A stretch of 64,000 nt of DNA from Tetmemena sp. SeJ-2015. Its lineage: Eukaryota; Ciliophora; Spirotrichea; Sporadotrichida; Oxytrichidae. This document shows, one piece after another, positions 1 to 64,000 of this stretch; positions within the stretch are counted from its first letter, which is position 1, and every line of letters starts with the position of its first letter. A program made the position numbers and the translations under genes. Location: positions 124,001 to 188,000 of the forward strand of contig JAJKFJ010020874.1 in the NCBI GenBank assembly GCA_027382625.1, read 5' to 3'. The notes under the pieces were generated by a model. That model was not told where the DNA came from. It did no database searches and saw only the letters and a list, made by a program, of their open reading frames with translations.

Positions 1-325
1 GTTTAATTGCGTTCCTCACCTCTGAGAATTAAATCCATTATAAATAATCAATTGGACGGCAACTTGATCAATGGTTTTTATCTAAAATCATTATCCTAAT
101 TATAATTAATCTTCAATAAGAAAAGCGAATTTATAGAATTTTATAAATTTCGATTTTGTGTTTGCTAGTTTGTTTGTCTTCTTATATTTAAATCTGATGT
201 GGATGTTATTTTTAAAATGAAAGTTAAGCATTGGTCTTTAAATTAATTGAAAACTCTAACTTCATTATCAAAATAAAGGTTTTTAAATTAATTTAAATTT
301 TAATTCTATTTGTCAAAAATGCTTT
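1..325. other. AT-rich flank, no gene seen
   Basis: AT-rich sequence with no coding pattern in either direction. It lies downstream of the minus-strand gene that ends near 326. It may be germline-limited spacer or the 3' flank of that gene. Confidence 0.5.
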
Positions 326-2337
326 TCATATATTTTGACTTACCTAATTATACACCTTAGAGAAATCAAAAGCTTAGATATTGCTATAGTCCGTAGAACT
401 GATAAGTTGCTTCAGTTCTTCTGAGACTTCGGCAAGTCCCAACCCAGAGATTATTTTCCTCAACTACTCTTCAAAAAAGGAAAGAGAGACCTCACTCTCC
501 TTAAGCTTCTGCATGTATACAAAATTAAAAAGTAGAAATTACAAAATATATTCCTCCTTCTCAACTGTAATGTTGTGAGTTTCAGTCCTAAGATACTAAA
601 TCTCGTATTTTTGCTTCTCCGACTGCGATTAGAAATTCCTCACTATCTTGATTATTGATACACTTAAATTAATTAAGCAACTACTCTAGAAGATATTTAT
701 TTATACTATAACTGGGCTAATTTTCTCTGAAAATTGAATTAAAGATAGTCTATTTACCCTTGCATCTTCTAAGTCAGTTGGATTCTATGAAATAAATAAG
801 AGAGCAATTAAGAATTGATATTAATGCTTTGACGAGTATCCTGTTGATCTCTTCATCTGAGATGTAGTCGTTCATTACTTTACTTTGGTAGTCATTCATC
901 ATCATCTCAGTTTACTCCAGTTTCTGCATCATCTCCAGTTTGTATTCATTGAAGGCGGTCTATCATAACATTTATAATGCATGATGTGCTTACCTCTTGG
1001 GCTGAAATGTAAAACTCATGATGCTTAGATACTAAGTCCAGTTTTCTCTTCCACGCTTTCACGATTTACTCTCGTTCTATCTCATACCCCTTCATGTCAT
1101 CTTAACAATTATTATATCACACACATCATAATCTATCTTCTAGCTTCTTCTCAAATTCTTCTACTGTAGTCCAAAGCTCTCCTTTCAGTTGCAGTATGTC
1201 CTCATTAGTGTCTATTTTTATCTAGTCCCATTCGTGCATCATCTAACTTATCTGCTCGCCCGGGGGGTTATCTCCAAGCAAGCGATGCGTGTAGGGCCTA
1301 TCCTCACTTATAAGACCTAGTTTATAAACGGCTTCTATATTGTTGTCCTCTATGTCCTCTGCGATAACTGATAACTGCTTGCACTTCTAAGTCACCTCTG
1401 CAAACATTTACTTCACCTATCCAAATCTGTCTTCACAAAATCCCATATATATAAATCAAAATTAAGGACACATGAAATCCTTCTTCCTTTATTCCTCTCT
1501 TAAAAATTCCTGTTCCTTCTCCTAGATCTTTTTGAAATCGTACTCTTTGAATTTATTGCCTTTGGTTTGGCTTTCAAAAAAAAATAATCAATCATTTATT
1601 GAATGATGAGTAGTTCATTCTTTTCTGGGTGTGCCAGTATTTATTCTAGAGTGTCTAGATGAGAATAATCTCTAGGATTGCCTGGAGTGCTCATGAACTC
1701 CTTTATCATGTCTGAGTTCTTGAATAGCCCCTCTCATTATGAAGTTGTTCAGCTATAGTCAAATAATAAGGAAAAGCAATTTTAATTGAATTATTTTATT
1801 ATGGTATTTTACTATGTAAAGTGTCTCAAGTTACTTACATTTTGCACGTACTCCATCAACAGCTTCTATAATCCAGATGACTTTAGCATCAAATTAGACC
1901 ATAGCAACTTGTTTTTTTAAAACTTCTCTGTCACCTAAAAGTTAAATTCATTAAGGATTAGAGAGGAGGATTTTCAATCGTATACAAACTGAGGATGCAT
2001 TTATGTGGCTTACATTGAAATTTGCTTCTAGACTTTGAACTAGATGAGAAAGAGTTAGTGTTGAAATGTTCTTGACGAGATCTTGCTTCAACTCTTGCTT
2101 AAGTTTAATGAATTAGTGGTAAAAGTCTTTATGAGCGTAAGAATGCTTTGGATTGAAGAGCGTGTAGGAGTTAAGCAAAGATAGACCTGTGTCCTACTTG
2201 GGCAAGGGCTGGCGGAAAGATAGAGGGAGCGAACTGTCTCTCTTCTTTATGTAGAGAGTTCTTGAATCCTCTTCCCTATAGGATTTGAGGCTCTTGTTCA
2301 TGAGAGACTTCTCAGCTGCTGCAGTTTTCTATTTCAT
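326..2337 (-). CDS. Coiled-coil protein, function unknown
   Basis: Minus-strand gene of roughly 550-600 codons starting at the ATG at 2337 (MKQKTAAAEKSLMNKSLKSY). TAG/TAA are read as Gln and the first usable TGA is at 326-328. The product is charged and helical (for example LKGELWTTVEEFEKKLEDDM), with no domain I recognise. The body is broken by GT-AG introns (about 2013-1935 and 1008-960 on the plus scale) and by three repeat-bounded IESs at 1099-1134, 1436-1456 and 1574-1587. Their removal restores the frame and takes out in-frame TGA codons. One extra G in a GGGG run near 1732 also breaks the frame, probably a sequence error. Splicing of the last 400 bases is not fully resolved, so the C-terminus is approximate. 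Confidence 0.6.
1099..1134. other. IES, 36 nt, pointer ATCTT
   Basis: ATCTT repeats at 1099-1103 and 1135-1139. Removing one copy plus the intervening DNA joins ...EKKLED to DMKGYE on the minus strand and removes an in-frame TGA. Confidence 0.75.
1436..1456. other. IES, 21 nt, pointer CAAAAT
   Basis: CAAAAT occurs at 1436-1441 and 1457-1462. The insert keeps frame but contains TGA. Excision gives MCPQFCEDRF on the minus strand. Confidence 0.75.
1574..1587. other. IES, 14 nt, pointer TCAA
   Basis: TCAA occurs at 1574-1577 and 1588-1591. Excision restores the reading frame (QQMIESQTKGNKF). An indel in the A9 run is an alternative explanation. Confidence 0.5.
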
Positions 2338-2506
2338 TTTATTTAAGAAAGTAATTATCAACATTCTTATCACTTCATAAGTAAGATAAATAAATAAAAG
2401 CCATCCAATTTCAACCCCTCAGTAAAACTCAATTGGTAAGTTTGGATAGAATTATAGATAGTTTATAGATTCTTAGAATCGTGAAGATTATTCTCCAAAA
2501 GCTTCA

Positions 2507-4197: not shown

Positions 4198-4350
4198 TGT
4201 TTACGAGTTAATAAGCATATACTCTAACTTTTTTATAATAGAAAATATTTCACCAGGTATGATCAGAAAATTAGGGAAGAATTGTAATAAAATTAAAATT
4301 TTAATTGCGAGATTAAAGCTCATTAAAGTTTGAGTAATTTTATCTTCGAA

Positions 4351-6392: not shown

Positions 6393-6424
6393 AGAATTCA
6401 TTTATGTAGTTGTATAATTGATAA

Positions 6425-15244: not shown

Positions 15245-17666
15245 TCAATTAGTTTAATATTTGTTATTAAAACTTTAGTTGTGAATATTATTTTGTTCCA
15301 TGAATTTCTTGAGAACGAACATATACTCATCTTTGCCTTTTTAGTAGTCCATCTTACTCATGAATGGATGCTTTAGCAGCTCTTCCACAGATTAATTCAA
15401 TTATATTTTAAGATGGTCTCTCCCTTGGGTCTTTAGTGAGGCAGACTTTGACGAAATCTCTCATGTTTGCTGACCACTTAACTGGGTCTATCTCAGGTGG
15501 ACTCATAGTGAGTATCATGTAGCACACCTGTGTCTGTGGCTGATTCAAATAAGGGGGTTCTCCATATACGAACTCCTGCATCATAATTCCCAAACTCCAA
15601 ATGTCTACAAGAATTTAAAATACACAACTCTTATAATGTCAACTTTCTGAGTGTACATCTCAGCTCCTTTGATGATCTCTGGAGCCATCCAGCAGACTGT
15701 CCCCACTTTTGACTCTCTTCTTTTCCTTTCTCTCGTGAGCTGAGCTGCATATCCAAAGTCTCCCAATTTTATATCTCCATTCACTCCAAGCAGAATATTA
15801 TCGCTCTTTATGTCTCTGTGGATAATGTGTCTTTAATGCAGATATTTTATTGCCTTTAGAGTAAAAATAGTTTTAATTATACTATTTTTAAGTAGAGTTT
15901 CAAAAACAAGGTATTGTATAACTCCTTCAGTGAAAGCCTGATAGAAGCCAGCCTCCAATATATCAGTCAGACACCCAGCGTCCATATACTCAATAAACAG
16001 CCAGAACTTCTGCTTGAAATAGAAACCATCATAGTACCTCACTATGTTATCACAGTCGCATACTGACATAAGAGCTATCTCATTCTTAATAGAGCTGATC
16101 TGCTGAGAGTTCTAATTTCCTTGTTGGATGAATTTTAAAGCATAGAGACTTTGATCCACCTTCTTTTGGACCAGATAAATCTTGCCATAGCCTCCAGATC
16201 CAATCTGTTTCACTATGTCATAGTAGAGAGCAGGGTTGTCTTGTTTGAAGAGTTAGGAGCTCTCCAAAATGGCATTATAGTCTATATTTCCGGGAAGAGG
16301 TAAGGGCTCTTCTTTTGGCTAAAAGCCGCCCTTGGAGTTGAAACTTATAACCTCCAGAACAGAAATGGGATTTTGCTGTATCTGTTAAGCGTTAAAGTTT
16401 GATTTTTTCAACTATTATTCACTAAAATACTTTTAAACAATTAGATACATGTGATTTGAATTCAAGTTCTTCTGGAAGACCTTTGAATCCAACTGCGTTG
16501 CTTGGGTCCACTTCAACCTCATACTATACCATTACCTTCTCACTTAAACTCTCAGCTGGTGTTTGAAACTTTTCTGAGTTATCGGGTGAGTGGGTGGTGC
16601 CCTTAATAAGAGGTAGAGTCTTGGATTCAGCACTTTCCCTATCTCTTAATCTCAGACTTTATTTTTCAGTTTAAGGCGTCTAAAACGGACTGCCTGTTCC
16701 TTATTGGTTATTTGGAATATTTTTTATTGCCGTCACTATAAAAGAGCCCTGCACTTCGTTTCTTTGTCTGAACTCATAGTGGAAGTTGTTTGGCAGCACT
16801 CCTTTTAATCTCGAAGTGTTAATCTATAAACTCTCATCAAAATATTCCAACTCTATGACTTTTTAAAATATCATGAGCTTAATAAATTCAAAGAGAAGAA
16901 GCAAATTATTTAGAAGCTAGGATAATCTTTTAATTTTTAACCTAAATTAAATGAGTAGTGAAACGTTTATAAATGAAATTATTCTCATGAATCTGATCAA
17001 TTTCTTGAGATTAAGGAGTCATTTCAAGTAATTCTCTCCACACCCTAGGTAATCCTTCATACTAATTCAGCTCTTTATTGAACTTGACCTCCAGCGTTTT
17101 TTCATACTTGAGGGGTTCACTTATCCTGGGTAAGGCATCTTCTGCTGTTTGAGCGGACTTTTTGCCTTTTTTAGAGAGATTCATACTCTTTGATGTCTCA
17201 TTGTCAGATTTGTAGTGAATGTCGTCCAGAGAAACAAATATCTTATATAAGAGATACAACCATTGATTAATGAGTCTGCTTATTTGTTTTCTTGGATCTT
17301 TCGGTGACTGAGTTATCCCTAAGGTTGAAAGACTTGTTATTTCTAGTCGAATTGTGGGTTTGTGTTTTCCGGAGGCTTATTTTCTGCGACTCATTATTCT
17401 TAGAATATATTAAGACTCCATATAAAAAAAACATGAATATTATATCATTTAAAGATTAATTTGACTATATTATCTATGCTGATTGAGCATGTATGGCATA
17501 CTCTCTTCTTAGACTTAGAAGCTACTCCATCCTGCATTGCGATCCTCTCCCTATTGCTGCAGTTTGTGCAATGACTGCGGTTGCATATGACGCACTCAGT
17601 TCCCTTTTGAAATCTTTTCAAATTCTTGTTGCAGCTGGAGCAAAATAAACTCTGGTTATTGCCCAT
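15245..17666 (-). CDS. STE20/PAK-type kinase with FYVE-like finger and CRIB motifs
   Basis: ATG at 17666 begins [20 protein letters not shown]/treble-clef-like zinc finger follows (Cys pairs CSSC, CVIC, HCTNC, CHTC). At about 17,110-16,850 a first CRIB/PBD motif appears ([20 protein letters not shown]), interrupted by the 114-nt IES and continued as [11 protein letters not shown] second CRIB-like motif ([14 protein letters not shown]) lies near 16,500, interrupted by a GT-AG intron at 16,460-16,391. The kinase domain runs 16,240-15,330: glycine loop [12 protein letters not shown], catalytic loop [14 protein letters not shown], and APE in [13 protein letters not shown] kinases are activated by Rac/Cdc42-type GTPases through CRIB. 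Six IESs lie in the gene (17393-17468, 17234-17255, 16871-16984, 15857-15892, 15600-15634, 15389-15410). One homopolymer indel near 16,862 is needed. TGA at 15245-15247. Confidence 0.88.
15389..15410. other. IES, 22 nt, pointer AGAT
   Basis: AGAT at 15389-15392 and 15411-15414. Excision joins DPRERPS to [10 protein letters not shown], the conserved end of a kinase domain. Confidence 0.9.
15600..15634. other. IES, 35 nt, pointer AATGTC
   Basis: AATGTC at 15600-15605 and 15635-15640. Excision restores VDIWSLGIM, kinase subdomain IX. Confidence 0.93.
15857..15892. other. IES, 36 nt, in frame, pointer TAGAGT
   Basis: TAGAGT at 15857-15862 and 15893-15898. The insert is 36 nt with no TGA, so it would be silently translated. 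Kinase spacing ([18 protein letters not shown]) shows it is foreign to the protein. Confidence 0.9.
16871..16984. other. IES, 114 nt, pointer TCATGA
   Basis: TCATGA at 16871-16876 and 16985-16990. It splits the first CRIB motif; excision places QIHDI directly before [10 protein letters not shown], apart from one homopolymer base. Confidence 0.75.
17234..17255. other. IES, 22 nt, pointer ACAA
   Basis: ACAA at 17234-17237 and 17256-17259. Excision joins QSMVV to [10 protein letters not shown] in frame. Confidence 0.65.
17393..17468. other. IES, 76 nt, pointer ATTAT
   Basis: ATTAT at 17393-17397 and 17469-17473. Excision joins CSISIDN to [10 protein letters not shown] and removes an in-frame TGA. 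Confidence 0.75.
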
Positions 17667-20563: not shown

Positions 20564-23474
20564 TCAGGAGAAGAACTATTTGTATCTAGACACTATCATC
20601 TTCATAAGTTCTTCATTCTCCAAAAATAAGATGTGTGCTGTTCTTATAAAGTAAATTAAAGTAATAAATATACAACAATTCTTCCAATAAAAGAATCCAA
20701 ATTAGTTTCTGAAATGTTAAAGTTCACGTCAAGCCTGTAGAGGACTCCAACAGGTAACTTTGAAAAGAAGGTTATTTGCCATCTTTATATACGTGTTGCC
20801 TTTATTAACATCCTTTGCAGCATCCTAGCAAATTTGTATTCTTGCTGAGTCGAAGGGAGCGTACTAGTCTTAGTAACTGCTCACAAATATTATGTGCTTG
20901 AACCAATTCAAGCCTTCCATTTCCGATAGCTCATATATCACAGTCTTCTCCAGATTCTTATTGTCTGCCATCGACAGCTGAGTCAGGCACTGAGACTTCC
21001 TCCACTTCTTGAGCACCCACATACCTGCATTGAACATCTTTCCAGATTTAAGAATAAATAGAGCAGAATCATAATTTGTACATGTAACCAAGGTGAGGAC
21101 TGCATAAGGTGATGAAGCCATGCATCTTATCTTTGTACTTATCTAGATACTAGAGTGCTGCTCTTATTATCAGACCTCCTAAGGAATGCCCGATGAAAGT
21201 AAGCCTCGACAGATTGTGCCCTGGGCAGCTTTCTCTTATGTACTGATGAATTTCTTGAGACAGTTTATATCCCATATCTAAAAATATATCTTACATTTTC
21301 ATTTATGAAGATATAAATCAATTTTATATCTAGATATTTCCATCTGTGTCTGATTCATTAGCAGTAGAACAAAGAAACTGAGCGTCTGGAAGTGCAATTG
21401 ATATGACATTTTTAAACATCCTCATATCAAACGAGGAGCCTTGGAATCCATGGCACAGCACAAACAAGTGCACTCCCTTGTAATTATCAGGGGCCTTGCT
21501 AGGATTGATCTTGTTTTCTATATCTACATCACTCAGCTCAAATGCATTCTTAACTTTATTCAGCTGAGTCTTTTCGATCTTGACATAGCACTCCTCAAAT
21601 ACATTAAGCATTTTTAAATATGAGGGGAGCGTATTTTTCCATATTCCTCTTCTTTCTGCGCTTACTCTTCTTCTTTCCATTTTAAACCTCTTCGACTTCT
21701 ATTTTAACTTCTTCAACTGTTAGTGGCTCTATTCCAACCATCTGCTTGTGCATTTTTAACATTTCTCTTGTCTTCTTCGCTACTGTATCATTTAGTTACC
21801 CGGTGTAGTCCTCACTTGGGATTGAATAAAAGTTAAAAGCAAATAGTCACTAGTCTTAATCAGATGTCTGAGAATATTTTCGCCATATCTTTCTTCAAGT
21901 TACTTCTAATATTGATCAAGAAGAATCTTGTAAACTCTCTTAGGCTTGTACATAATCATTTTTGCCAAGTTGTTGAAAGTTCAAACAGCTAACCTGCGAT
22001 GAAGTTAACCTCTAAGATAATGGCATTTGCAACTTTATTAGAGTCATTTCTAATATCCTTCTGCTCTTGAGATAGTTTAGAATAGGGAAGCGGCTGAGGA
22101 ATCTCAGTGTTGTTGCTACTGTTGCTACTTATCTATTAAGATAAGCTTTTCTATGCTCCTTGATTGATTTGCATTTGTAGTATAGACTACTTGGAAACTT
22201 TTGATTCCTCCTCTTCGTTTCCATCAAAGCATACATGAATGAATAAAAAGTTGTATATGATACATTAGGACTATCTCCGTTACTATCATTATCAGGAATT
22301 ATTTTCCTCCTTGGCTCTAAGTAATTCACTGGCCGCTCCTCTTCATTCAAAGTAGAGATACTACCGCTTACTTTAGTCTCTTCATCGAGTACTAAAGTAG
22401 ATTAGTCAAGAATGATGGCGTCATTTATACTGAAGTCGTCAAATTTCTCCTCAATCTTCTAAATATCTTTGTCAAGGATTTTATCTAGGCCCTGAATTTC
22501 TAGGTCTTTAGGAACCCGAGGGAAATCGATATAAGCCCAATCGTCTTGGTAGATGATTTTTTAAGAGAAGTTGAGATAGATAGCTCTCAAATTGTGAAAG
22601 ATCTACTTGAGAGTGCTCACTAGCTCCACATATCTTTCATTTATTTTACGATCATTGATTACAACTATCCCATACTCGTCTTAGAAAAAGAAATCTGCTA
22701 GACTAATTCCAGCTGAGTTTTGCTTCTCTGTTTGAAGTAAATACTCTTACAGATCTTCAAACTTAGCCTCCACCAGTATTCCATTTTCCATAAAAGTGTC
22801 CCCTCTGCTCTTTATCTTAAACCTCTGATTCTTAACTCTAAATCTGTAATCGATTATAGACCCATGGATAGTACTCACACATTAAGAAGTATACTCCTTT
22901 TCAAATTGTATAGGTACAAAAGTCGACATTCCATGCAGTAAGCCATTGATTTGGTAGATTTTGGTTTGAGAAAGCTAGAATTTAGAGGCCTGTTTATTCA
23001 TTTCCTCCTTCATAATTTCTGCTGAATTAATTGCAGCTGAGAAGTTTTACTGAGGGGGTTGACAATAGTATAGTTCGCACTTTAAAAAGAACTCTGTGTT
23101 CAGGTAGCCAGGCTAGATGTCGATTTCTGTTCTAAATTTAACGATATCCCTAATCATCACTAGCTCCTCAGCATAGCGAATGAAGAAGATCTTAGTCACA
23201 AAGGATGAACTGTCGTCAAGGGTTTGAGGCTCTTGAAGTCTATGAAAACTCGCCTTATCCTTATTGCGAGATTCCAAGTCCTTGGAAATGTAGTCATAAG
23301 GATTTGCATAATAAATCTAGAAAGGAGTTTAAAATGGGGAGGGAGTAACCTTACTTTTTCTACATCTTCATTAAATAGCTAGAATCTCATGTAGTAAAGT
23401 CCTTGTTGGAAGAGATCCACATTTCTGAAGTGTTCAATATGGAAAATGATCTCCGCTATTCCTCTAAACGACAT
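20564..23474 (-). CDS. FAM135: FAM135-type alpha/beta-hydrolase (DUF676 lipase family)
   Basis: ATG at 23474; TGA at 20564-20566. The N-terminus MSFRGIAEIIFHIEHF followed by RNVDLFQQGLYYMRF matches the FAM135 N-terminal domain, and the C-terminal half is a serine-hydrolase domain. The oxyanion/strand region LFVLCHGFQGSSFDMRMF lies near 21,450. The nucleophile motif FIGHSLGGLIIRAAL is near 21,190. The acid-loop region SSYQDQYAPFDSARI is near 20,880, and the His region RTAHILFLENEELM near 20,630. So a complete Ser-Asp-His triad is visible. The physiological substrate of the family is unknown. IESs at 21046-21073 and 20642-20679 interrupt conserved segments; a further interruption near 21,280-21,340 is unresolved, and a homopolymer indel is needed near 20,765. 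Confidence 0.9.
20642..20679. other. IES, 38 nt, pointer TCTT
   Basis: TCTT at 20642-20645 and 20680-20683. Excision joins LDSFIGR to TAHILFLENE, the catalytic-His region of the FAM135 lipase. Confidence 0.85.
21046..21073. other. IES, 28 nt, pointer ATTT
   Basis: ATTT at 21046-21049 and 21074-21077. Excision joins PHLGYMYK to SGKMFNAGMWVLKKW, as FAM135 spacing requires. Confidence 0.88.
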
Positions 23475-23631: not shown

Positions 23632-26600
23632 ATGTCAGATATTGATTCAATTAGCTCGCCAGAAAAGGGTAATTTAATTATAGACTTAAGAGAGCCTATA
23701 GTTGTGAAGACAAAGTAGGATAGAGAGGACTGAAAAAGTGAGGAATATTGACCCAAATTCAGCTTTAATGAGCAAAATTCCATGCTAAAGCCTCTGCCTC
23801 TGATTAACTAAAATACGAATTAACAGCCTGAACCTTAACTACTCAAAGCGTAAGTTAATTTAAGACAAGAGTAGAGTCGATAGCATTCCTTCCTATTAAT
23901 AATTTCTTGCTAGAATGAAGAGAAGGCCGACTAAATTAAAAAATTAGTTCAATGAAGATGAAGGTTGTCAGCATTTGAAGGTAAATAATTGGCTTTGCTC
24001 CGATTGCAATTAAAAGGTTTCTTAATTTGGGAGTGTATTTGACACAAATAGTGGCAAGGTTAAAACGTTTATGCAAGTTGTCTTAATAAAAGTAAAAATT
24101 ATCCTTTTGTGTCTATGAAAATGACTTCTTAGAAGATTTCATGCTCTCTAATTTGAACATGGCCTAAAATATGGAGAGCTACTACTCTCGGTAATCGACT
24201 GGTCAAAATGATTCTGAGTAGTAAAACTCTTAACAGGAATTAGATGGAATGAAATCACACCAATCGAACATTAAATAACAACAGAACATTGCATACAATC
24301 GCTTTTAATGTTTTCAATTCTATTATAAGCATTAAAATATATCTTAAATGCTGGTTAAAATGTGAAGGAGCCTGAAATAATTTACTAACAGTATTAGCCC
24401 TAAAATACCTCCCAACTCAGAGAGTACTTAAACTTTCTGTTGTGTAAGAGCATAAAGAAGGTGAATAAATCGGGCGCGAAAAATTATCTTGGTACAGGAA
24501 ACTTCAAAGGAATCTCTAAAAGGCTTTTGAAATACCTTCAAGAGAAGGAGTTAAATAATAAGAAGCTCTTATAGAAGTACTGTAACGATATTCTCTTATT
24601 CGACTCAACCTTTGAAAGTGGAAATTTATTGTAGGCGGAGATGATAAACTCTCATGAGTATCAGCTTTATATGCAAGTGGACACGAATACTCGAGGACAC
24701 TAGCAATGGTTTTACTTCAAGGTTAAAAATGCGAAACCAGATAGGAAATACGTTTTCAGAATCATGAACTTCACAAAGCCTGGGTTGGTGAGGTCAAGTA
24801 ATTAGAAAGGCTCAAAGCAATAAGAAGGCTAAGATTCCTTAACCAATCATCTTTTTTAATCAGTCATTAAGGCACTTAAATTAATTAGAATGAAAACGAT
24901 GAGCCTATATAAAATCCAGACGCAGGATTTGTTGGACCTGCATTTTTGGGCTAGAAAAAGCAAGAGCATCTTTAAAGAATCCACTTTTAATACAAAGGGT
25001 AGACGAGTTGGCAATAAATAGACTCAGATAAGTTAGAGTTTGTAAAAACTGATGTTCCTCGCAAGAGAAAGGATATTCTTGCAGCGGCTCAGGATAGTGA
25101 TCAGGAAGATATCGCTGAGTATATTAAGTTATTTAATTTCTTATTGAGGAATAAATAGATGAGAACGGAAAATAGAGCAAAGCAAAACAGTAGAAAAAGA
25201 GAAAAGCGCAATTCTATTACGCACTATAGTTTGAATTTCAATTCACTGAAGCCAAAGGATCAGTTCGTTTTGCATTTTCAATTCCTCAAACTCTTAGCCA
25301 AACTACCTTTACATATCTAGAAAAAGAAGCATACATGAGTTCATAAAGGCTTGAAGAACCCTATCTTGAAGAAGATGATTTAAATCAAATAGCTAGGCAG
25401 GGAAAGAGTGGCAAAAAATCCCTCAATCCATCTTACTTTAAAGTTGAATTACCATCTAAGGGGATATTTTACAGAAGGGAGGAGCTAGCAAAGAGCATTT
25501 GCGGACTGCCACTATATTAGATCGTGATAAGCAAGGATAGTAAGAATTACAAAAGAAGGCCTATTGTTATCATAACTTCAAGAGTTCATGCAGCTGAAAC
25601 CCCAGCAAGTCACGTCTATGATGGTATTTACGAATTCTTGACTTCAAATACATACTAACCTTTATTTTTTACTAAGCAAGAGGCTTGAGAAAGCTTTACA
25701 CTTTTATTCTTGTCCCTACTCTAAATCCTGACGGCATAGTGAGTGGAAACTATAGAAGTTCTGTGTCAGGAGTAGATCTAAATAGATAATGGATTCAGCC
25801 AGATTAAGATATCCATCCATTTATCTTTTTACCATCCTGAGATATTTGCAATAAAAAACCTCATGCGGTAACTATACGAGGTTGAAAAGAGAAAACTCTG
25901 GATCTTCTGCGATTTACACGGACACTCGAAGAAAAAGAACTGCTTCTTCTATGGTTGCAATACTGCAGCAAATGGAGGATTTCTGAGCTGGACTATAGTA
26001 AGATTGTTGCCAAGAATATTTGCAAGGAAGACTCACTTCTTCAACTTTAAGGACTGCAGATTTAAAGTTGAGCCTTACAAGTTAGGAACTGGAAGAGTAG
26101 TCGCATGGAAATAGTTTCTCATTACTCACTCTTTCACATTGGAAAGTAGTTTCTATGGGTATGATTATGGAGAAGATTCCCACAAATGCTTTGCAGAAAG
26201 AGACTATAGGGAAGTTGGAGCGAAGCTTTGTTCGTCCATCTATGAATTACACTTTCTCTGGAAATCTATTAGGAATGAATTGAGGTTAACGCAAGGGTGG
26301 TTGAAGCCTCGAAAGCTTATAGAGATCACTGGAGTGCCTGCAGCCTAACTTTTGAACGAAGAACTTATGAAGAAAAAAAAAGAGGAATAGAAGCGGAAGG
26401 CAATTGAGCAGTATGAGTAATTTCTTAAGAAGTTTTATAATAACAACATACCTATAAATTTAACTGCACAGACATCAGATAAAAAGAAGTCTTTATTTTA
26501 TTATAATAAGAAAACTAAAGGCCTTCATTAGAATTAACAACCTACAGATTAAACTAAAGCCAAATCTTCAACTTACTATTCAAATAAATTCATCAATACA

Positions 26601-33287: not shown

Positions 33288-34815
<1,528 letters not shown>

Positions 34816-42717: not shown

Positions 42718-43552
42718 ATGGAAGGAAGCAGAGAATCTCAAGAACCTAAAAGAGGCGATTCCGCATCCAGGAATCAAGAAAAAGAGCAAACTGAATCATA
42801 GTAGTAATAAGAAGTAGTCAGAGCTGAAAACCAAAACTAATCAGAGTAAAAAGGAAGCGATAGACAGGACAGAAGAGGGGGAGGAAACACTTTTCACAAT
42901 CACTTTCATGTGGACAGGGAGAAGACTTGTCCTTTCCTGCTTAGAATGTTTGTAAGAGTAAATGGAAGGCTCGATCTCTCGGATCTTAAATACGGAATTC
43001 CAGACTAGATACAGATCTACACTTGGATGGATGCAACTCTTGGAGAGCTAGCTGAATGCGTCAGGAGAGAATTTGAAGTAGCAAGATAGAAAGAAGCGGA
43101 TCTTCAGTTTTCGATAGTCTACCCTGATCAATCTGGAAAGTACAGAAGAAAGCATATAGGGAGTGTATTCCAAGGCTAGAGAAATTTCATAAGCTCATGT
43201 TTTAAAAATTAATTTGGAATACAAAGAGACTCTTCATCAGCACAGATTCGTTATCGGGGACTATATTGATCTCTCTATCTTCTGTGAAGAGACGAAGAGT
43301 AATTAGAAAAACTAGACGAGAGTACAGGGATCTGGCCTCGCTCATCCAAGGGATTTTAATGAAAGAAACCCTAGAAGACAGGACTCAAGGGAAAGATACT
43401 AAGAGAAGAGGAATGATAATAGAAGAGAAGATAATGGCATATCTAAAAGTGATAAAAGAGCCTACGATAACAGAGATAAGAGAACTTAGAATTACAGTGC
43501 AAGCCAGAAAGATAATCGCCAACAGAGAAATAGATCAAGATCAAATAGATGA
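42718..43552 (+). CDS. SAP18: SAP18 family protein with RS/RD-rich tail
   Basis: ATG 42718, TGA 43550-43552. After about 60 charged, Gln-rich residues the ubiquitin-fold SAP18 domain is unmistakable (VDREKTCPFLLRMFVRVNGR; IQIYTWMDATLGELAECV; then HRFVIGDYIDLSIF). SAP18 belongs to the ASAP/PSAP complexes with RNPS1 and Acinus/Pinin in splicing and exon-junction biology, and to Sin3-HDAC complexes. A 28-nt IES (43183-43210) interrupts the domain. The C-terminal about 85 residues (from about 43,290) are Arg/Asp/Ser/Asn-rich, ending QQRNRSRSNR, an RS-like extension absent from the compact animal protein; it might be a fused splicing-factor-like tail. Confidence 0.92.
43183..43210. other. IES, 28 nt, pointer AATTT
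   Basis: AATTT at 43183-43187 and 43211-43215. Excision joins GSVFQGQRN to LEYKETLHQHRF inside the SAP18 domain. Confidence 0.88.
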
Positions 43553-43782: not shown

Positions 43783-44913
43783 TCAAAAAGGTGAGGTATG
43801 AAATTTGATTATTAGGCATGAAGTGTTATAAATAAGAAAAAACTTATCTTTGGATCCTTTTTCAATGGACGATTTGACTATGGCTTATGCGATTTCCTTG
43901 GAGTTGAATTCATCCTTACAGAAATTGACTGCATCCTGATCTTCAAGGGCATCCCAAACACCATCACTTGCTACTATCAGGTACTTGTCACTCGTTCTTA
44001 AGATGTGCTTCTTAATATAGGGTTTTGCAATAACACCATCCTTCTTTAGAGAGTGATCTCCAAACGCCCTTGTAATTGCAAGAGAGCCTCCCACTCTGTT
44101 ATCCAAAACGATTCCTCCTTGAGATCTGACTCTCTCCACCTCTGCTTGATCTGTACCTTTGTGGTCGTAGGACATCCTCTCCGCAACTCCGTTCTTACTC
44201 AGCACTGCTCTCGTGTCTCCCACATTTGCCACATATACAACCTTATTTCCCATTTCTTGTCTCACCACAACTACGCAAGCAGTTGATCCCGTGTTATCTG
44301 CATCTATCAACCTTAGCTCGTTATGCTTAAATTTAAATTCAATTCAATTTATAAAGTGTGACATCTGATTTAGGCAATATCGATCTATGTTTGAGTAAAC
44401 AAATATTGATAATATTTTACTCTTGTGAACACTTATTCAAGTGCTTAACTTAAATCCCCTGAGGTCCTTTAGATCTCCTTTCTGAGTTCATCTGGGATTC
44501 TCTCAGCGCAGTGATCTGCAACTTGTCTGCCTCCATGTCCATCGAACACACCAAATATTCCAAGATTGGGGTCTCCATTAAGTTTGTCCCTTGCGAAATA
44601 AGCTATAAAGATACATAAGCATATTCAATTCGTTGTAAAAAAGATTTTTGAATATGAATACTTGATTGATGAAACTTACTGTCCTCCATGGATGGCCTGA
44701 ATCTGAAATTTTTGTCTTCTGTATATGCAAATTCCTTGACACATGAGGCGTTCTTTTCATGAACTAAAAAATAATATAGTAAGTAACTCCAACTTCTTGC
44801 ACTAAGTTTCCAATAGAGAAGGCTCCTCCAGCTGCTGGCCCAGAGCCCCAGTCTACACCACCGCCAAAAATGGGATTAGATCCTCCGAACTGGTACTAAT
44901 ACGAACTTTGCAT
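43783..44913 (-). CDS. PP2C-family Ser/Thr phosphatase
   Basis: ATG at 44913 (MQSSYQYQFGGSNPIFGGG), TGA 43783-43785. Metal-binding motifs are in order: FRFRPSMEDTYF with the MED motif (restored by an intron at about 44,676-44,601), IFGVFDGHGGRQVADHCAER, then NTGSTACVVVV, YVANVGDTRAVLSKNG, RVGGSLAITRAFGDHSLK, YLIVASDGVWDALEDQDAV and the terminal SKDNTS restored by IES 43826-43843. All aspartates expected for the binuclear metal centre are visible. A 115-nt GT-AG intron lies between VFTR and HNELRLIDADN. An additional IES lies at 44762-44784. Convergent with SAP18; 230 bases separate their stops. Confidence 0.92.
43826..43843. other. IES, 18 nt, pointer TTAT
   Basis: TTAT at 43826-43829 and 43844-43847. 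Excision creates the canonical PP2C end GSKDNTSCLII followed by TGA. Confidence 0.85.
44762..44784. other. IES, 23 nt, pointer AACT
   Basis: AACT at 44762-44765 and 44785-44788. Excision joins NLVQEVGV to HEKNASCVKEF in PP2C. Splicing at the nearby GT/AG would break the frame. Confidence 0.75.
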
Positions 44914-45119: not shown

Positions 45120-46925
45120 ATGGCAGATAATTAAGTTAAGAGTCCTTGACCCGATAGCCAACTATTTCAAATCTGGAGGGGTCTCAGAAGCAGCAGTCCA
45201 GGCGGAACCTAAAGAACGCAAGCTAATCAACTATTGAAGATTTTGAGGTTCTTTCTAAACTAGGTTTGTAACGACTCTCTCTTTTTAAATCAATAAAATA
45301 TTTTGGCAATAATTTCTAAAAATTAACTTTTTTTTATAAAGGTGACGGCGCTTACAGCAGCGTGTTCCAAGCCAAAAGAATTGCAGATAGCGAGATATAT
45401 GCGCTTAAGAAAGTCAAACTGCATCATCTCTCCGACAAGGAAAAGGAAAATGCTATTAATGAAGTCAGAATTCTTGCTTCAATCAAGCATCCAAACATTA
45501 TTCACACTATCCCATTATATGTTTGTGTTTAAGTAATTTGATTATAAATTGCTTACAAAGAAGCTTTTCTAGACAATACTTCTTAATCTTTAAATATATT
45601 GTATCTCTATGGTAAGCAACTATAAACTTGTAACTTCTTAAGCATCGTGATGGAGTATGCGGACAACGGAGATTTGTTTCAGAAGATCCAAGACCACTAA
45701 AAATAGAAAACCTACTTCTCAGAGCAAGAAATCTGGAAGATATTCATTTCAGTGGTCAGAGGACTCAAATCCATGCATGACCTCAATATCATGCACAGAG
45801 ATCTCAAGAGCGCAAATGTTTTCCTCTGCAAGGATTTTACTGCAAAATTAGGAGATATGAATGTATCCAAAGTAAAAAATAATGATGATTTAAGTTTGAT
45901 AATAGTTATTATATGTTTGGGGTTTAGCGAATAAAAAAGGACTAAATTACACGTAGACTGGAACTCCTTACTATGCAAGTCCCGAGGTATGGCGGGATGA
46001 GCCTTATGACGTTAAAAGCGACATCTGGTCATTAGGTTGTGTGCTCTATGAAATGATTGCTCTGAAGCCGCCCTTCACAGCTGAGGACATGGAAGGGCTT
46101 TTCAAAAGCGTGAATAAGGGTTACTTCCCAAGGATCCCTAAGACATTTTCCCACGATCTTTGGCAGATGGTGAAATACCTGCTGCAAGTTAATCCTTAAG
46201 CTAGGCCCTCATGCGACTAGATAATGAATGTGCCCACCTTCGCCAAGAAGCAACAGAAGTTCTTTGGCAATAACAAACTTAATGACTCATTTGACCAAAA
46301 CATCCTACTCAAGACTATCAAGTTCGGCACTAACCTCATGTATTTTACAATCTTTAATTTTTTTTTAGAATTTGAGTGACAAGCTGCCAAAGTAAAACTA
46401 CTCTAAGGATCTTTCTCTCTTAGCGAACGAGGACATTATGATTTAAAACTAGTAAGATTCGTAGACTCTAAATAGAAACTCAAGTAAAAAGGTGGCTGCT
46501 TATAACTCTAGAATACTTCAGCAGAAGGAGTCCAGACTGCCCTCCATTCAAAACATGAAGCAAATATACCTTAATGGAAGCTCTACCAATCCTGCCTAGA
46601 GTGCAGTCAGAGAACTCTCTATCACTCAAAGCCAGGAGGATGCAAACAATAGAAGCATGATTCTTGCTCAAAGTCCGCAAAAGAATAACAACTATCCAAT
46701 ACTCAAATTAAAATATAATTAAATGTAAAGTGTTTAATTAGTGAAAGATACTTAACTTATTTCATAAAGCTTAGATTTAATTCAGTTTCTCAAAGTTAAA
46801 TACAATTTATTAAGAATTACAATATCGGCAAAACAGTAGGGTATTTTTATTTTATTTAGGCTATATTAAGTCCCAAAGAAAATGGACAGATTAAAAAAGC
46901 AAGAATATACCATAAAATCAAATGA
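45120..46925 (+). CDS. NEK (NIMA-related) protein kinase
   Basis: ATG 45120 (MADNQVKSP), then a frame break in a CC run near 45,150, then IEDFEVLSKLGDGAYSSVFQ. Kinase motifs: YALKKVKLHHLSDKEKENAI, then NEVRILASIKHPNII, SLSIVMEYADNGDLFQKI, HDLNIMHRDLKSANVFL, TAKLGDMNVSKVA, QTGTPYYASPEVWRDEPYD and DIWSLGCVLYEMIALKPPF. DMN replaces DFG, common in ciliate NEKs. Four IESs (45262-45339, 45500-45547, 45590-45637, 45873-45924) are needed to restore these motifs. NEKs act in ciliary length control and the cell cycle. The tail is Ser/Gln-rich. The end at TGA 46923-46925 assumes that the short exon-like SPKENGQIKKARIYHKIK belongs here across an unresolved interruption. Confidence 0.88.
45262..45339. other. 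IES, 78 nt, pointer AGGT
   Basis: AGGT at 45262-45265 and 45340-45343. Excision restores the glycine loop SKLGDGAYSSVFQ. Confidence 0.9.
45500..45547. other. IES, 48 nt, pointer ATT
   Basis: ATT at 45500-45502 and 45548-45550. Excision joins SIKHPNII to AYKEAFLDN, a conserved NEK segment. Confidence 0.9.
45590..45637. other. IES, 48 nt, pointer TTAA
   Basis: TTAA at 45590-45593 and 45638-45641. Excision restores TSQSLSIVMEYADNGDL. It is in frame without TGA. Confidence 0.88.
45873..45924. other. IES, 52 nt, pointer TA
   Basis: TA at 45873-45874 and 45925-45926. Excision gives NVSKVANKKGLNYTQTGTPY in frame. A GT-AG cut nearby would shift the frame. Confidence 0.82.
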
Positions 46926-48585: not shown

Positions 48586-49083
48586 TAAACTCTATAATTA
48601 TAAATCATCATCGCTCTTCTTGTAATCTATTTTATCTTCAATTCTCTTCATAAAGTCAGATTTGAGAAATTTTAATAATCTTTATAAAATATAACATTTT
48701 ATATAGGTTAGACTATAATAGATAAATATTACTTTTTATTGAGATTATTATCTTGGTGAAGGTAATGATTTAGAAAAGGGGTGATTACTTGGATAATATA
48801 GATGGATTATTATGTGAATGATGATTAAGTTATGTGGTAGGAGTGACTCATTAGGTATTATTCTCATAATTTAAAAAAATTCCAAAATAAAAAAAGAATA
48901 ATAATTCTATTAAAAAAATTTAAAGAATTAATTTCTAAAATTCCATTTTTCTAATTTAATTAAAGAAATATGGCTTTAGAACGCTCGATAATAAAATAAA
49001 ATGTATAAAATTTAAATTATTGTTGGTAATATAATTAAATCTTTCTGTGAAGGAATCATAAATCAACTTAGAAAATCTAAAAT
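48586..49083. other. AT-rich intergenic stretch
   Basis: About 500 bases, strongly AT-rich with poly-A and poly-T runs, no coding signal. It separates an unknown gene from the mutase gene. Confidence 0.5.
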
Positions 49084-51690
49084 ATGCAGTCATTTAAGCA
49101 AGCTTACAAGAGCGCCCTCTCCTCAGACAGAGAACTCTCTTCGCCTCCCAACAGCTAGTCAACCAGTAGTATAGAGTAAGTCAAAATCATAACTGAAAAC
49201 TCACTCATGATGACGCAAGATTTCAATTGCTATCTGTGAATTGCAGTTAAGAATTTGGTTCTATCATGTCATCATCATTAGCAATCAATCTGAGGATTTA
49301 TCTCTCTTTGAATGTGATTTCTCATGTTATTTGTAGGCTATTGGAAACAAAGCTGATGTCACCCTCAACAAGAAGTGGGAAGGCTTGGCCGCTAAAGAAC
49401 TCAAGGGAAAAGATGTCAAGCAAACTTTGGTTAGAGAGACTAATGAGCAAATGCTCGTCAAGCCCCTCTACACTGGTGAAGACTGGTAAACTCCCGCAGG
49501 AGAGCAAGCAGTGCCAGGTAAGAATCAAGCATTCCTTTCTCTACTTGCATCATATCGCTGGAGTCAAGATATTTCTGAAAGTCACCAGTACTTAATTCAT
49601 GATATAGGTGTGTTCCCTTTCAAGAGAGGACCATATGCATCCATGTACACCTTCAGACCTTGGACTGTAAGGCAGTACGCAGGTTTCAGTACCGTGGAGG
49701 AGTCTAACGAGTTCTACAAGGCAAATCTTAAGGCTGGACAGCAAGGTCTCTCAGTAGCCTTCGATTTGGCTACTCACAGAGGATACGACTCTGATCACGA
49801 GAGAGTGGTTGGTGATGTAGGTATGGCAGGAGTGGCTATTGACTCAGTAGAGGACATGAAAATTCTCTTCGACTCAATCCCCTTGAAGGATATTTCAGTG
49901 TCTATGACCATGAACGGAGCAGTGCTGCCCATCCTTGCTATGTACGTCGTTGCAGCTCAAGAGCAAGGAGCTACTCTTGACTAGCTCAGTGGAACCATCC
50001 AGAACGATATCTTGAAGGAGTTCATGGTGAGAAATACTTTCATCTACCCTCCTGAGCCTTCCATGAAGATCATCTCAGACATCTTTGGCTACACTTCCAA
50101 GAACATGCCTAAGTTCAACTCTATCTCCATCTCAGGTTATCACATGCAAGAGGCTGGTGCTGACTCCAAGCTCGAGCTCGCCTTCACCATCGCAGATGGT
50201 CTAGAATACATTAGAGCTGCTCAGAAAGCAGGTCTGACTGTTGATGAAGTCGCCCCTCGTTTCTCATTCTTCTTCGCCATTGGAATGAACTTCTATATGG
50301 AAATAGCCAAGCTCAGAGCTGCCAGACTTCTCTGGGCTACTCTTGTCAAGGAAAAGTTCCACCCTAAGAGTGACAAGTCCTGCATGCTCAGAACTCACTG
50401 TCAGACCTCTGGTTGGTCTCTATTCAAAAATTTAAACTTCTGCATTAAAGGATGAATCTTATGATCGCTTTATAATAACTGAGCAGGACCCATACAACAA
50501 CATCGTCAGAACAGCTATTGAGGCTTGCGCTGCAGTTTTCGGAGGCACTCAGTCTCTCCACACTAACTCTTTTGATGAGGCCATCGCCCTTCCTACCAAA
50601 TTCTCTTCCAGAATTGCAAGAAACACCCAACTCATTATTCAGGAAGAAACAGGAATCACTCACGTTGCTGATCCCTGGGCTGGAAGTTACATGATGGAGT
50701 CTCTTACTCAGGAGCTCGCTGCCGAGGCCCTTAAGATTATCAATGAAGTCGAAGAACTTGGAGGTATGACTAAGGCTATAGTTTCAGGCATGCCCAAGCT
50801 CAGAATTGAAGAGTCCGCAGCCAGAAGACAAGCCAAGATTGACTCAGGAGCTGAGACAATCGTGGGAGTTAACAAATACAGACTTGCCAAGGAGGAGACT
50901 AACTTCGAAGTGAGAAAGATCGATAACTCTGTCGTGAGAGTGAAGCAGATTGAGAGAATTAACAAGATCAAGGCCACTAGAGACGAGGCTAAGGTGCAGG
51001 ATCTACTTGGACAGCTCACTGCAAGTGCCAAGAGTGGACAAGGAAACCTCATGGATATGGCTGTTGAGGCTGCCAGACAAAGAGCAACTGTTGGAGAAAT
51101 CTCCAAGGCACTTGAAGATGTGTATGGCAGACACGTACCCCACAACTAGATTGTGAGAGGTGCTTATTCCAAGGAGGCAACTACCAAGGCTGGAGAGAAG
51201 GGCAAGCTTGAGTTTGAGAACGCTCTTAATAAGGTTAAGGAATTCGCCAAGAAGGAAGGACGTAATGAAATATTAATAAGAGTCATATTGAAGTAATCCC
51301 AGAATCCTTGTTGCTAAGATGGGTCAAGATGGTCACGATCGTGGAGCCAAGGTTATTGCCTCAGGTTTCGCTGATCTCGGCTTTGATGTTGACGTTGGTG
51401 GACTTTTCCAGACTCCTGAGGAAGTAGCTCGCCAAGCCATCGATAACGATGTGCACGTAGTTGGAGCAAGCTCTCTAGCTGCTGGCCACAACACCCTGGT
51501 ACCTGCTCTCAAGCAAGCTTTGAAGAAGCAAGGTGGAGACCACATCGTGCTTATTGCTGGCGGTGTGATCCCCAACCAGGACTACGACTTCCTCCTGAAG
51601 AACGGAGCCTCGATCGTGTTCGGCCCAGGCACTAAGGTAACTGACGCAGCCTGCAAGATCGTTGACCTCCTCGAAAGCAGGAAGAAGTGA
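49084..51690 (+). CDS. MMUT: Methylmalonyl-CoA mutase, mitochondrial
   Basis: Adenosylcobalamin-dependent isomerisation of (R)-methylmalonyl-CoA to succinyl-CoA in mitochondrial propionate catabolism. ATG 49084 opens with [18 protein letters not shown], a plausible targeting presequence. The substrate-binding barrel is full length ([60 protein letters not shown]). The C-terminal B12 domain carries the DxHxxG ligand motif in [18 protein letters not shown] and [20 protein letters not shown] is at 51688-51690. In-frame TAG occurs in TLDQLSG and VPHNQIVRG. A clear 90-nt GT-AG intron lies at 49518-49607, a 160-nt interruption near 49175-49334 with AG ends, and two IESs at 50421-50475 and 51262-51292. 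Codon use is GC-richer than in neighbours, as expected of a well-expressed gene. Confidence 0.97.
50421..50475. other. IES, 55 nt, pointer TA
   Basis: TA at 50421-50422 and 50476-50477. Excision restores the invariant [13 protein letters not shown] of methylmalonyl-CoA mutase exactly. No GT-AG alternative keeps this sequence. Confidence 0.95.
51262..51292. other. IES, 31 nt, pointer GTAAT
   Basis: GTAAT at 51262-51266 and 51293-51297. Excision joins KKEGRN to [14 protein letters not shown], the conserved entry to the B12 domain. Confidence 0.96.
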
Positions 51691-51878
51691 GATTCATGCT
51701 TTGAATTTAACTCCTACCACTATTTAACTTTTGTTGCTTTAACATTTAAGGTTAACATTCCACAGAGTTTAATGACTTCTGTGACTATGATGTTTATTCT
51801 AATTGGAGCGAATATTTCTAATTGAGTTGCAAATAATAATTGAGAGTAATATTAAATATTTATATCGCAGTAACAAAC

Positions 51879-52732
51879 ATGGATTTGGACCAGACCACTT
51901 TGCTCTACAGAGTCAGACGCACAGTCCTCCAGATGCTCAACGACAGAGGCTACATCGTGAGTCAGAGCAAGCTCAACCAGACCATCGAGGACTTCAAGGT
52001 TAACTTCAACGGCTCGAGAGACTCCCTCAACCTCCTTGTCTCCAAGCGCCCCCAGGAGGCTGAAGGAGCTGAGCAAGCAAACTCAAATATTCCTTGTACA
52101 TAAATATTTGCATTTAAGATTTAGTTTAGTGAACGAGCAGCAGAAGTTGATTGTGTTCTTCCCGGACACTGAGAAGCTGAACATGGAGCAGCTGAAGAAG
52201 ATCACCCTCAAGATGATTGAGATCAACTGCTTCAACGCCATCGTCATCATCAAGGGCGCCACTCAGATCTCTCGCAGGGTAAAAACTTTACTATCCAAAC
52301 TCATTATTCTTTAACCCTCATTTCGAGGTTGTATTCGATTGAACTTAAATGAATGTTTGCTATAGGAACTGGATGAGATGAAACCTTGTGAGATTGAGTG
52401 CTTCCTTCAGCAAGAGCTACTTGTCAACATCACTGAGCACGAACTTGTCCCCAGACACGAGGTTTCCTCACAGACAAGGCAAAGAACGAACTCCTCCAGA
52501 AGTAGTAAGTTATTAAAATAAGCTCAACAGAGAGATTTTCCTCAGAGAAAGTCTAAGAAACTTAAGTTTAAACTCTTATGTTTATAGTCGTGTGAAAGAC
52601 GCACAGCTGCCTAAGATTCAAGTTGATGACCCTATCGCCCGCTACTACGGAGTCAAGAGAGGCCAAGTCATGAAGATCGTCAGAGCCTCTGAGACTGCTG
52701 GCAGATATGTGACATACAGACTGGCCTACTGA
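51879..52732 (+). CDS. POLR2E: DNA-directed RNA polymerase subunit RPB5 (I, II and III)
   Basis: Shared subunit of nuclear RNA polymerases I-III. ATG 51879 gives [20 protein letters not shown] and [20 protein letters not shown]. The C-terminal core shows [12 protein letters not shown], then [19 protein letters not shown] and [21 protein letters not shown] at 52730-52732. Introns are GT-AG at 52096-52129 (34 nt), 52279-52365 (87 nt) and 52505-52587 (83 nt). Length is close to the usual 205-215 residues. At 52461-52468 two extra bases break the frame between HEV and [13 protein letters not shown]; no pointer repeat is evident, so this is more likely a sequence error than an IES. The N-terminal linker is slightly long. 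Confidence 0.95.
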
Positions 52733-62870: not shown

Positions 62871-63591
62871 AAAATTTCTCCTGATGGAGCAGTTTGGATA
62901 ATGAGGTCTCCAAAAGACCATGAATTTAATAAAGTAGTCTCGCACTATTAATCGGCAAACAGATGTAAATAGTTAACTACTGATTGCACAGAGTAATTAT
63001 TCAAGGAGTTTCAATCGATTTAACTATTTCTATATAAAATTCATTTACTGTTAATTATAGCTTAACAAATCTAAATTTCTTAAAAGTTAAAAATGCAATA
63101 TAAATTTTTTTGGTAAAAAAACTTTCTTAAATTAAAGGTATTTTCCAAACTTACTAAGTAAAAATGATTTTGATCTCTATTAACTGTTACAGATATAAAT
63201 CCTATTGAATATTGTAGTCATATAACTAAGATTAATTGCTTTTAAAATTTCTTCCCTAAAAAAGTTTCTCTCAATCTATCTTAAGCATTGGAGTGGTGTC
63301 CTCAGATTGTAATAGGACTATTAAAGATTTTATCAGACCCCTTCATTTATTCTATTTTTAATATGTTTTCACATTTCTAATCTCACCTTCTAAACCTTTT
63401 GCTAAATATTAATTATATTTAAATGGAAGAGGCGATAATGAGGTTTATTAAATGGATGAGTGTTTTATATGTGAGAAGGTGAAGTAAGGAATTAATTCAT
63501 GTTGTTGTGGCAAAGTCTAATAAATGAATGACGAACACTACTGCATATTAAAAATTGCCCGCTGTCTTCATTAACCAATGACTGCTGCTGC
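62871..63591. other. AT-rich intergenic stretch
   Basis: About 720 bases between convergent genes, AT-rich with no coding signal. The longest gene-free stretch in the window. Confidence 0.5.
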
Positions 63592-64000
63592 TCATTCGTG
63601 TCTTGGCCTCTTGTTCTTGTTATCCACGAAGTCGTTGGAGGCGTTGTAGCCCTTGCTCTCTGCTTTGGCTTGCCATTTCTTTTAAGCGCCACCTGCTCCG
63701 TTCTGCTGAATGACCTTTCCGCCTGACTCAAGGAGCTTGACTCTGCCTTCAAGGTAGGCTCTGTTCTTCATACCGAGGGTTCCTTCGACGTCTTCTCCGA
63801 GGGCATCGTATCTAACGCAGAGGGCGCACTTGTTAGCAAGGGTTCTGGAGACCTTACCCTTTAGCTGATTCTTGGCGGCACCAACGATACTAGCGTTGTA
63901 GATGAGACCGTACTTGGGAGTGTTCTTTCTTGCCTTAAGAGCTCTGAAGAGAGCCTTCTCGCTCCGAGGATTTGAATAGTTGAGGCGGGAGCTTAGCGAG
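63592..64000 (-). CDS. NOP58: NOP58 box C/D snoRNP core protein, C-terminal part
   Basis: Partial: the window edge cuts the 5' side. Visible residues are the end of the NOP domain (EKALFRALKARKNTPKYGLI; KGKVSRTLANKCALCVRYDA; GMKNRAYLEGRVKLLESGG) and a basic tail ending NKNKRPRHE, with TGA 63592-63594. NOP58 pairs with NOP56 and fibrillarin in box C/D snoRNPs that guide rRNA 2'-O-methylation in the nucleolus. RYDALGED and GMKNRAYLE fit NOP58 better than NOP56. Two single-base gaps near 63,962 and 63,980 break the frame at the extreme edge (LAKLPASTIQILGAEKAL expected). Codon use is GC-rich, like other highly expressed genes here. Confidence 0.9.

What the first reader, a model, noticed from the sequence alone, without database searches (positions are those of the whole stretch)
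1..64000. The window is germline DNA with dozens of pointer-flanked IESs
Thirty-seven interruptions have exact 2-7 base direct repeats at their borders. Removing one repeat copy plus the insert restores conserved protein (mutase, PAK, MAPK, NEK, PP2C, SAP18, FAM135, CCP). This is seen directly; that such structure marks ciliate micronuclear IESs is established for spirotrichs. Identification of this contig as micronuclear is inference.
Basis: partly seen in the sequence, partly recalled or inferred. Interest (0 to 1): 0.9.

Follow-up and report, generated by a model that had tools for sequence, protein, structure and literature searches.

The report
Ciliate germline DNA with excised inserts
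The window is very probably a piece of the germline genome of an Oxytricha-like ciliate, whose genes are cut up by short AT-rich inserts that the cell removes when it builds its working nucleus; this is a known system, with one extra find, a mobile-element insert present in only one of two germline copies.

Summary
The main claim holds. The window (part of a 234,701-bp contig) uses TAA/TAG=Q and TGA stop, and conserved genes are interrupted by short AT-rich pieces flanked by direct repeats. I placed 17 such elements in seven genes: repeats 2-6 bp, removed 13-55 bp, 13 of 17 not a multiple of 3, none GT-AG compatible. Nine rest on repeat-blind alignment (two as ties or near-ties), eight on reading. 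Ten other interruptions are GT-AG introns, two with a 4-bp AGGT repeat, so repeat-only counts mix classes. The figure 37 could not be checked.

For another gene the assembly holds a telomere-capped contig whose germline version is scrambled: 42 junctions, pointers 2-9 bp, none GT-AG compatible. Window repeat lengths do not differ from these. A second germline haplotype keeps 8 of 8 elements examined.

Extra: that haplotype carries a 412-bp TA-flanked mobile element in the PAK exon; a related copy lies in a stretch missing from the somatic contig.

No somatic copy of this window was found, so excision here is inferred. Known kind; new examples.

The parts
50421..50477 (+). IES in methylmalonyl-CoA mutase, pointer TA, 55 bp removed
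   Evidence: repeat-blind spliced alignment to P0004 and P0003; 14 of 60 shuffles reach a 2-bp repeat
51262..51297 (+). IES in methylmalonyl-CoA mutase, pointer GTAAT, 31 bp removed
   Evidence: repeat-blind spliced alignment; 0 of 60 shuffles reach it
16417..16464 (-). IES in PAK-like kinase, pointer TGAAT, 43 bp removed
   Evidence: repeat-blind alignment to P0241; kept in second haplotype
15857..15898 (-). IES in PAK-like kinase, pointer ACTCTA, 36 bp removed (in frame, no TGA)
   Evidence: within 4 points of best join, which has no repeat; kept in second haplotype
15600..15640 (-). IES in PAK-like kinase, pointer GACATT, 35 bp removed
   Evidence: equal-score join; kept in second haplotype
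15389..15414 (-). IES in PAK-like kinase, pointer ATCT, 22 bp removed
   Evidence: repeat-blind alignment; 21 bp in second haplotype, same pointers
34063..34081 (-). IES in MAPK, pointer AATA, 15 bp removed (in frame, no TGA)
   Evidence: repeat-blind alignment to a plant MPK6 chain; kept in second haplotype
33824..33840 (-). IES in MAPK, pointer ATGA, 13 bp removed
33514..33532 (-). IES in MAPK, pointer AAT, 16 bp removed
25653..25675 (+). IES in cytosolic carboxypeptidase, pointer TACTAA, 17 bp removed
   Evidence: read by eye; distant-reference alignment skips at the same place but at a join without repeat
25813..25837 (+). IES in cytosolic carboxypeptidase, pointer CCATCC, 19 bp removed
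   Evidence: as above
21286..21337 (-). IES in FAM135-like gene, pointer ATAT, 48 bp removed (contains an in-frame TGA)
   Evidence: read by eye
21046..21077 (-). IES in FAM135-like gene, pointer AAAT, 28 bp removed
   Evidence: read by eye
20641..20683 (-). IES in FAM135-like gene, pointer AAGAA, 38 bp removed
   Evidence: read by eye
45590..45641 (+). IES in NEK-like kinase, pointer TTAA, 48 bp removed (in frame, no TGA)
   Evidence: read by eye; the alignment to distant NEK1 skips here but at another join
45871..45927 (+). IES in NEK-like kinase, pointer AG, 55 bp removed
   Evidence: read by eye; a 2-bp repeat alone is weak, and the distant alignment chose another join
52076..52129 (+). 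IES in RPB5 (RPABC1) gene, pointer AG, 52 bp removed
   Evidence: read by eye; distant alignment chose another join; kept in second haplotype, 5 substitutions in 52 bp, none in the repeats
49176..49337 (+). GT-AG intron in mutase, 161 bp (not an IES)
49516..49609 (+). GT-AG intron in mutase, 90 bp, with AGGT repeat at its borders
34343..34591 (-). GT-AG intron in MAPK, 248 bp
33945..33982 (-). GT-AG intron in MAPK, 37 bp
33333..33369 (-). GT-AG intron in MAPK, 36 bp
45262..45343 (+). GT-AG intron in NEK, 78 bp, with AGGT repeat at its borders
52278..52366 (+). GT-AG intron in RPB5, 87 bp
52505..52587 (+). GT-AG intron in RPB5, 83 bp
44603..44679 (-). GT-AG intron in PP2C, 77 bp
44326..44420 (-). 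GT-AG intron in PP2C, 95 bp
16413..16415 (-). empty site: in the other haplotype (L053 790-1207) a 412-bp TA-flanked mobile element sits here

Best explanation
The window is micronuclear (germline) DNA of a hypotrich-like spirotrich ciliate related to Oxytricha. The non-GT-AG interruptions are internal eliminated sequences: during development of the new macronucleus each AT-rich piece is cut out as DNA and the flanking coding segments are joined at a short direct repeat (pointer), one copy of which stays. A second set of interruptions are ordinary spliceosomal introns removed from RNA. Shown: the code, the repeats, the restored frames, and germline and somatic versions of another gene in the same assembly with DNA-level loss at pointers. 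Inferred: that the 17 elements of this window are removed at DNA level. The enzymes (TBE-type or domesticated transposases) and RNA guides are recalled from Oxytricha and were not studied.
For: Code and frames. 17 repeat-bounded elements in seven genes, 7 returned exactly by an alignment blind to repeats and splice sites and 2 more as tie or near-tie. P0241 (83% identical; that its GI-type number points to O. trifallax is recalled) is uninterrupted at the 4 PAK sites, P0004 (87%, on a 2,769-bp contig) at the 2 mutase sites. Somatic/germline pairs for another gene: 42 unique junctions, pointers 2-9 bp (median 4), removed 10-964 bp (median 51.5), 0 of 42 GT-AG compatible; window pointer lengths do not differ (KS p=0.93). 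The 17 elements are poorer in GC than the 10 introns (0.18 vs 0.27, p=0.001). The second haplotype keeps 8 of 8 elements examined, and insert bases differ more than exon bases (14/231 vs 80/2854, one-sided p=0.009), so they are not assembly errors.
Against: No somatic copy of any window gene was found, so removal from DNA at these sites is not seen. Three of 17 repeats are only 2 bp, and one of these (MUT TA) is reached by 14 of 60 shuffles. Eight of 17 joins were placed with the repeat in view; for NEK, RPB5 and CCP the repeat-blind alignment to distant references chose other joins. Interruptions in NEK (about 45505-45552) and MAPK (about 34219-34250) have no convincing repeat.
Confidence: 0.96

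Rival explanations
1. The interruptions are introns (spliceosomal or non-canonical, repeat-flanked) removed from RNA only.
For: Ten interruptions in the same set of genes are GT-AG introns, two with a 4-bp AGGT repeat; intron and IES positions are known to interchange in this group (PMC9797194, section 10). Insert and intron divergence between haplotypes do not differ (p=0.64, four elements).
Against: None of the 17 can be framed as GT-AG in any register; five are 13-19 bp; DNA-level loss with the same pointer lengths is seen for another gene of this genome.
Confidence: 0.03
2. Assembly or sequencing errors, or decayed pseudogenes.
For: One- and two-base frame slips exist (SAP18, FAM135, RPB5, mutase 5' end), and the RPB5 slip is absent from the other haplotype.
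Against: 8 of 8 elements examined recur in separate contigs of a second haplotype with both repeat copies intact; conserved protein reads on between the elements.
Confidence: 0.005
3. The in-frame, TGA-free pieces (PAK 36 bp, MAPK 15 bp, NEK 48 bp) are retained protein segments, constitutive or alternative.
For: They read through in frame.
Against: In PAK and MAPK they break motifs that the homologues keep intact; random AT-rich pieces of these lengths lack TGA 77-92% of the time, so readability means little.
Confidence: 0.03

Closest known systems
Internal eliminated sequences and pointers of Oxytricha trifallax / Tetmemena (hypotrichs)
   Same: C4A4 contig ends, code, short AT-rich inserts, short diverse pointers below 10 bp, scrambled loci, DDE transposase domains (literature passages)
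   Different: Probably another species than O. trifallax (closest PAK protein 83% identical). Removed pieces listed here (13-55 bp) lie below the 73-bp median given for O. trifallax (PMC10901763, passage), but my method favours short ones.
TA-flanked IESs of Euplotes and Paramecium
   Same: Precise DNA excision between short repeats
   Different: Pointers here are diverse, not a fixed TA; the code is not that of Euplotes (TAA/TAG read through, TGA stops).
Mobile IESs and TBE elements (transposon-derived germline DNA)
   Same: The 412-bp element has four copies held with matching ends next to TA, one of them in a stretch missing from the somatic contig
   Different: Short, no C4A4 ends; one reverse frame is open throughout under TGA-only stops (138 codons) but was not examined; present in only one of two haplotypes at PAK.

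Membership tests
Hypotrich IES | direct repeat (pointer) at both ends, one copy left after removal | tested here: met
   17 of 17 listed have repeats of 2-6 bp, but 8 were chosen with the repeat in view; two further interruptions without a convincing repeat were not listed
Hypotrich IES | removal restores a conserved reading frame | tested here: met
   13 of 17 lengths are not multiples of 3
Hypotrich IES | absent from somatic DNA | tested here: inconclusive
   met for 42 junctions of another gene; no somatic copy of this window found in queries covering 15.1 of 64 kb
Hypotrich IES | AT-rich, non-GT-AG | tested here: met
   mean GC 0.18, 0 of 17 GT-AG compatible
Hypotrich germline genome | scrambled genes elsewhere in the genome | tested here: met
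   L028 matches pieces on several contigs, for example on C2416 on both strands
Hypotrich germline genome | C4A4 telomeres on somatic chromosomes | tested here: met
   L028 and L029 carry CCCCAAAACCCCAAAACCCC after 8 bases; nine more contigs begin with it, their somatic status not shown
Hypotrich IES | removal guided by parental RNA and transposase | not testable with these tools
   needs conjugating cells
MITE of Tc1/mariner type (412-bp element) | TA target duplication, conserved ends in several copies | tested here: met
   four copies share TAGCTGAG..ACT ends next to TA
MITE of Tc1/mariner type (412-bp element) | terminal inverted repeats | tested here: inconclusive
   only TAG..CTA at the very ends; best longer match lies inside the ends and 3 of 300 shuffles are as good

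The most novel reading that the evidence does not exclude
A short TA-inserting mobile-element family is still creating IESs in coding exons: the PAK gene carries a 412-bp copy in one germline haplotype and an exact empty site in the other, a few bases from an older IES, so the birth of an IES is caught as a polymorphism and can be tested within one strain.
Probability: 0.55. Interest if true: 0.5.

Novelty: new member of a known kind. Interest (0 to 1): 0.3.

Why it matters
It supports that this assembly is a germline genome and gives coordinates for 17 elements and 10 introns, so that repeat-only counts can be corrected. The pair of copies at PAK gives a filled and an empty site of a mobile element in one genome, a direct way to ask how soon a new insertion is removed during development.

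Tried and rejected
The Euplotes-type code (TGA=Cys) was tried first for frames and dropped after the mutase showed TAA/TAG at Q and a TGA stop. Own-genome searches with 20-kb pieces gave no somatic copy, but they did not list the window itself, so they count for nothing; the 10-kb queries likewise did not list their own contig, so the lack of a partner for L026 and L019 is weak too. Queries of 2.1-5 kb (15.1 kb of 64 kb) listed the window and copies 95-99% identical; the three stretches of these that I fetched keep the inserts. For mutase 49001-51828 only the window itself and a 67% paralogue came up. An own-species somatic protein was sought with a mutase piece chosen to span an IES between two TAG codons; among the 120 listed of 7,998 scored the highest identity was 93% (over 81% of the query), so none is listed. 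Distant reference chains (NEK1, CCP5, bovine RPB5) did not fix joins. In the somatic/germline comparison 183 pieces gave 167 neighbour pairs; 4 pieces under 96% identity and 50 pairs with more than one unmatched somatic base between them were set aside, none for lack of overlap; 117 pairs remained, 42 unique junctions. Species name: not determined; Tetmemena was considered from published assembly figures and not shown. My first reading of the PAK 5' IES (another repeat) was replaced by the repeat-blind result.

Full report
What the window is. It is bases 124,001-188,000 of contig C1953 (234,701 bp) in an assembly of 146 Mb and 5,213 contigs. Pfam names, among 20 fragments scanned, MORN, DUF676 and FAM135, NLI-type phosphatase, SAP18, Nop and a carboxypeptidase N-terminal domain, besides IQ, DUF5406 and weaker matches. 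PDB chains match MAPK, NEK, RPB5, PP2C and CCP; database proteins match mutase and PAK. The mutase shows the code: TAG and TAA read as Q, stop at TGA. The window has no CCCCAAAACCCC motif on either strand.

Checking the observation. I wrote a protein-to-DNA alignment that may skip any stretch of DNA at a fixed cost and knows nothing of repeats or splice sites. Mutase against P0004 (87% identical) gives two skips, both at repeats (TA, GTAAT). PAK against P0241 gives nine skips: in the conserved part TGAAT, ATCT, a site where GACATT is an equal-score alternative, and one where the best join has no repeat but ACTCTA scores within 4 points; the five in the poorly conserved N-terminus have repeats of 0 or 2 bp and were not counted. 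MAPK against a plant chain gives seven skips: AATA, ATGA and AAT, one exact GT-AG intron, two near introns, and one at about 34219-34250 without a convincing repeat. With distant references NEK gave three, RPB5 five and CCP seven skips, none at the joins that I list, though some at the same places. Reading by eye adds CCP 2, FAM135 3, NEK 2, RPB5 1, for 17 in all. Repeat lengths are 2-6 bp, removed lengths 13-55 bp, 13 of 17 not multiples of 3, 0 of 17 GT-AG compatible.

Introns. Ten more interruptions are GT-AG introns of 36-248 bp. Seven have repeats of 0-1 bp, one of 2 bp, and two the AGGT repeat, the usual exon context AG|GT (recalled). A count by repeats alone therefore takes some introns for IESs. 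The figure 37 could not be checked because no list came with it; it is not implausible.

Germline status and DNA-level removal. Nine contigs of the assembly start exactly with the 20-bp C4A4 end. One contig (L028), with that motif after 8 bases and a TGA-free frame of 2262 codons, has 137 matches spread over several contigs in mixed order and strand. Aligned to the twelve loci fetched (L039-L050), it gives 42 unique junctions with pointers of 2-9 bp (median 4) and removed pieces of 10-964 bp (median 51.5; 22 of 42 at most 60 bp), none GT-AG compatible; 50 of 167 neighbour pairs with unmatched somatic bases between the pieces were set aside. I read this as germline DNA and its somatic product in one assembly. 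Pointer lengths in the window do not differ from these (KS p=0.93). A search for the DDE_3 transposase domain had 921 first-look candidates; the 150 scored are listed over the cut-off; the domain also rings in 3 of 14 control genomes.

Second haplotype. Short queries find contigs 95-99% identical to parts of the window: C4995, C1481 and C305. In the stretches fetched, 8 of 8 elements (MAPK 3, RPB5 1, PAK 4) are present with both repeat copies unchanged, while the removed pieces differ at 14 of 231 compared bases plus two one-base gaps, against 80 of 2854 in exon columns (one-sided p=0.009; the MAPK exon slice includes some flank, and gap columns are left out). Intron bases in MAPK and RPB5 differ at 29 of 491, like the inserts of the same genes (7 of 96; p=0.64). 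The two-base slip in RPB5 is absent from the other haplotype; the other slips look like assembly errors at short runs, which is inference.

An insertion polymorphism. In C305 the PAK exon carries, a few bases beyond the TGAAT element, a further 412 bp that the window lacks, with a 3-bp ATA overlap at the empty site, best read as TA duplication. Copies with the same ends occur in L032 (88%), L048 (85%, matched over 406 of 412) and L031 (78 and 85%, in two pieces). The L048 copy lies at C4540:6854-7259, inside the stretch 6403-7302 between two consecutive segments of the L028 gene, and L028 and L029 hold no match longer than 20 bases to it. So a member of the family is missing from somatic DNA together with an IES, and another is present in one haplotype only. 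C305 could also be a paralogous rather than allelic copy (about 96% identity); removal of its element is not seen. I had no own-genome search left to count copies.

What it works like and what it is. The features of a hypotrich IES that I could test are met, except direct absence from somatic DNA, which is met for another gene only. How the cuts are made in this species was not studied; transposase and RNA guidance are recalled from Oxytricha. Literature used: PMC9797194 (abstract and outline, section 4 part 1 with Table 1, sections 6 and 10, some passages) and PMC10901763 (abstract, outline and passages); search listings.

Noticed in passing
L053 790-1207 (contig C305), window empty site 16413-16415: 412-bp TA-flanked mobile element in the PAK exon of one haplotype only; related copies in L032, L048, L031.
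   Followed up: partly
L028, L029 (contigs C2611, C5026): Telomere-capped contigs with a 2262-codon TGA-free frame; the germline version of L028 is scrambled over several contigs with inversions.
   Followed up: partly
L019 (C298) against C1815:27610-44130: 95-96% identical copies, one with a 6.5-kb insert that starts next to a C4A4 repeat and shows a 3-bp overlap of flanks, as expected of a TBE-type element; the insert could not be fetched.
   Followed up: no
window about 49120-49145, 43150-43160, 52460-52470, 20770-20785: One- or two-base frame slips near short base runs in otherwise readable genes; the RPB5 one is absent from the other haplotype.
   Followed up: partly
window about 45505-45552 and 34219-34250: Interruptions in NEK and MAPK without GT-AG ends and without a convincing repeat; the MAPK one is kept in the second haplotype.
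   Followed up: partly
search tool: 20-kb queries failed to list the window itself and a 97% copy that a 4-kb query finds at once; 10-kb queries did not list their own contig. Negative results from long queries should not be trusted.
   Followed up: yes
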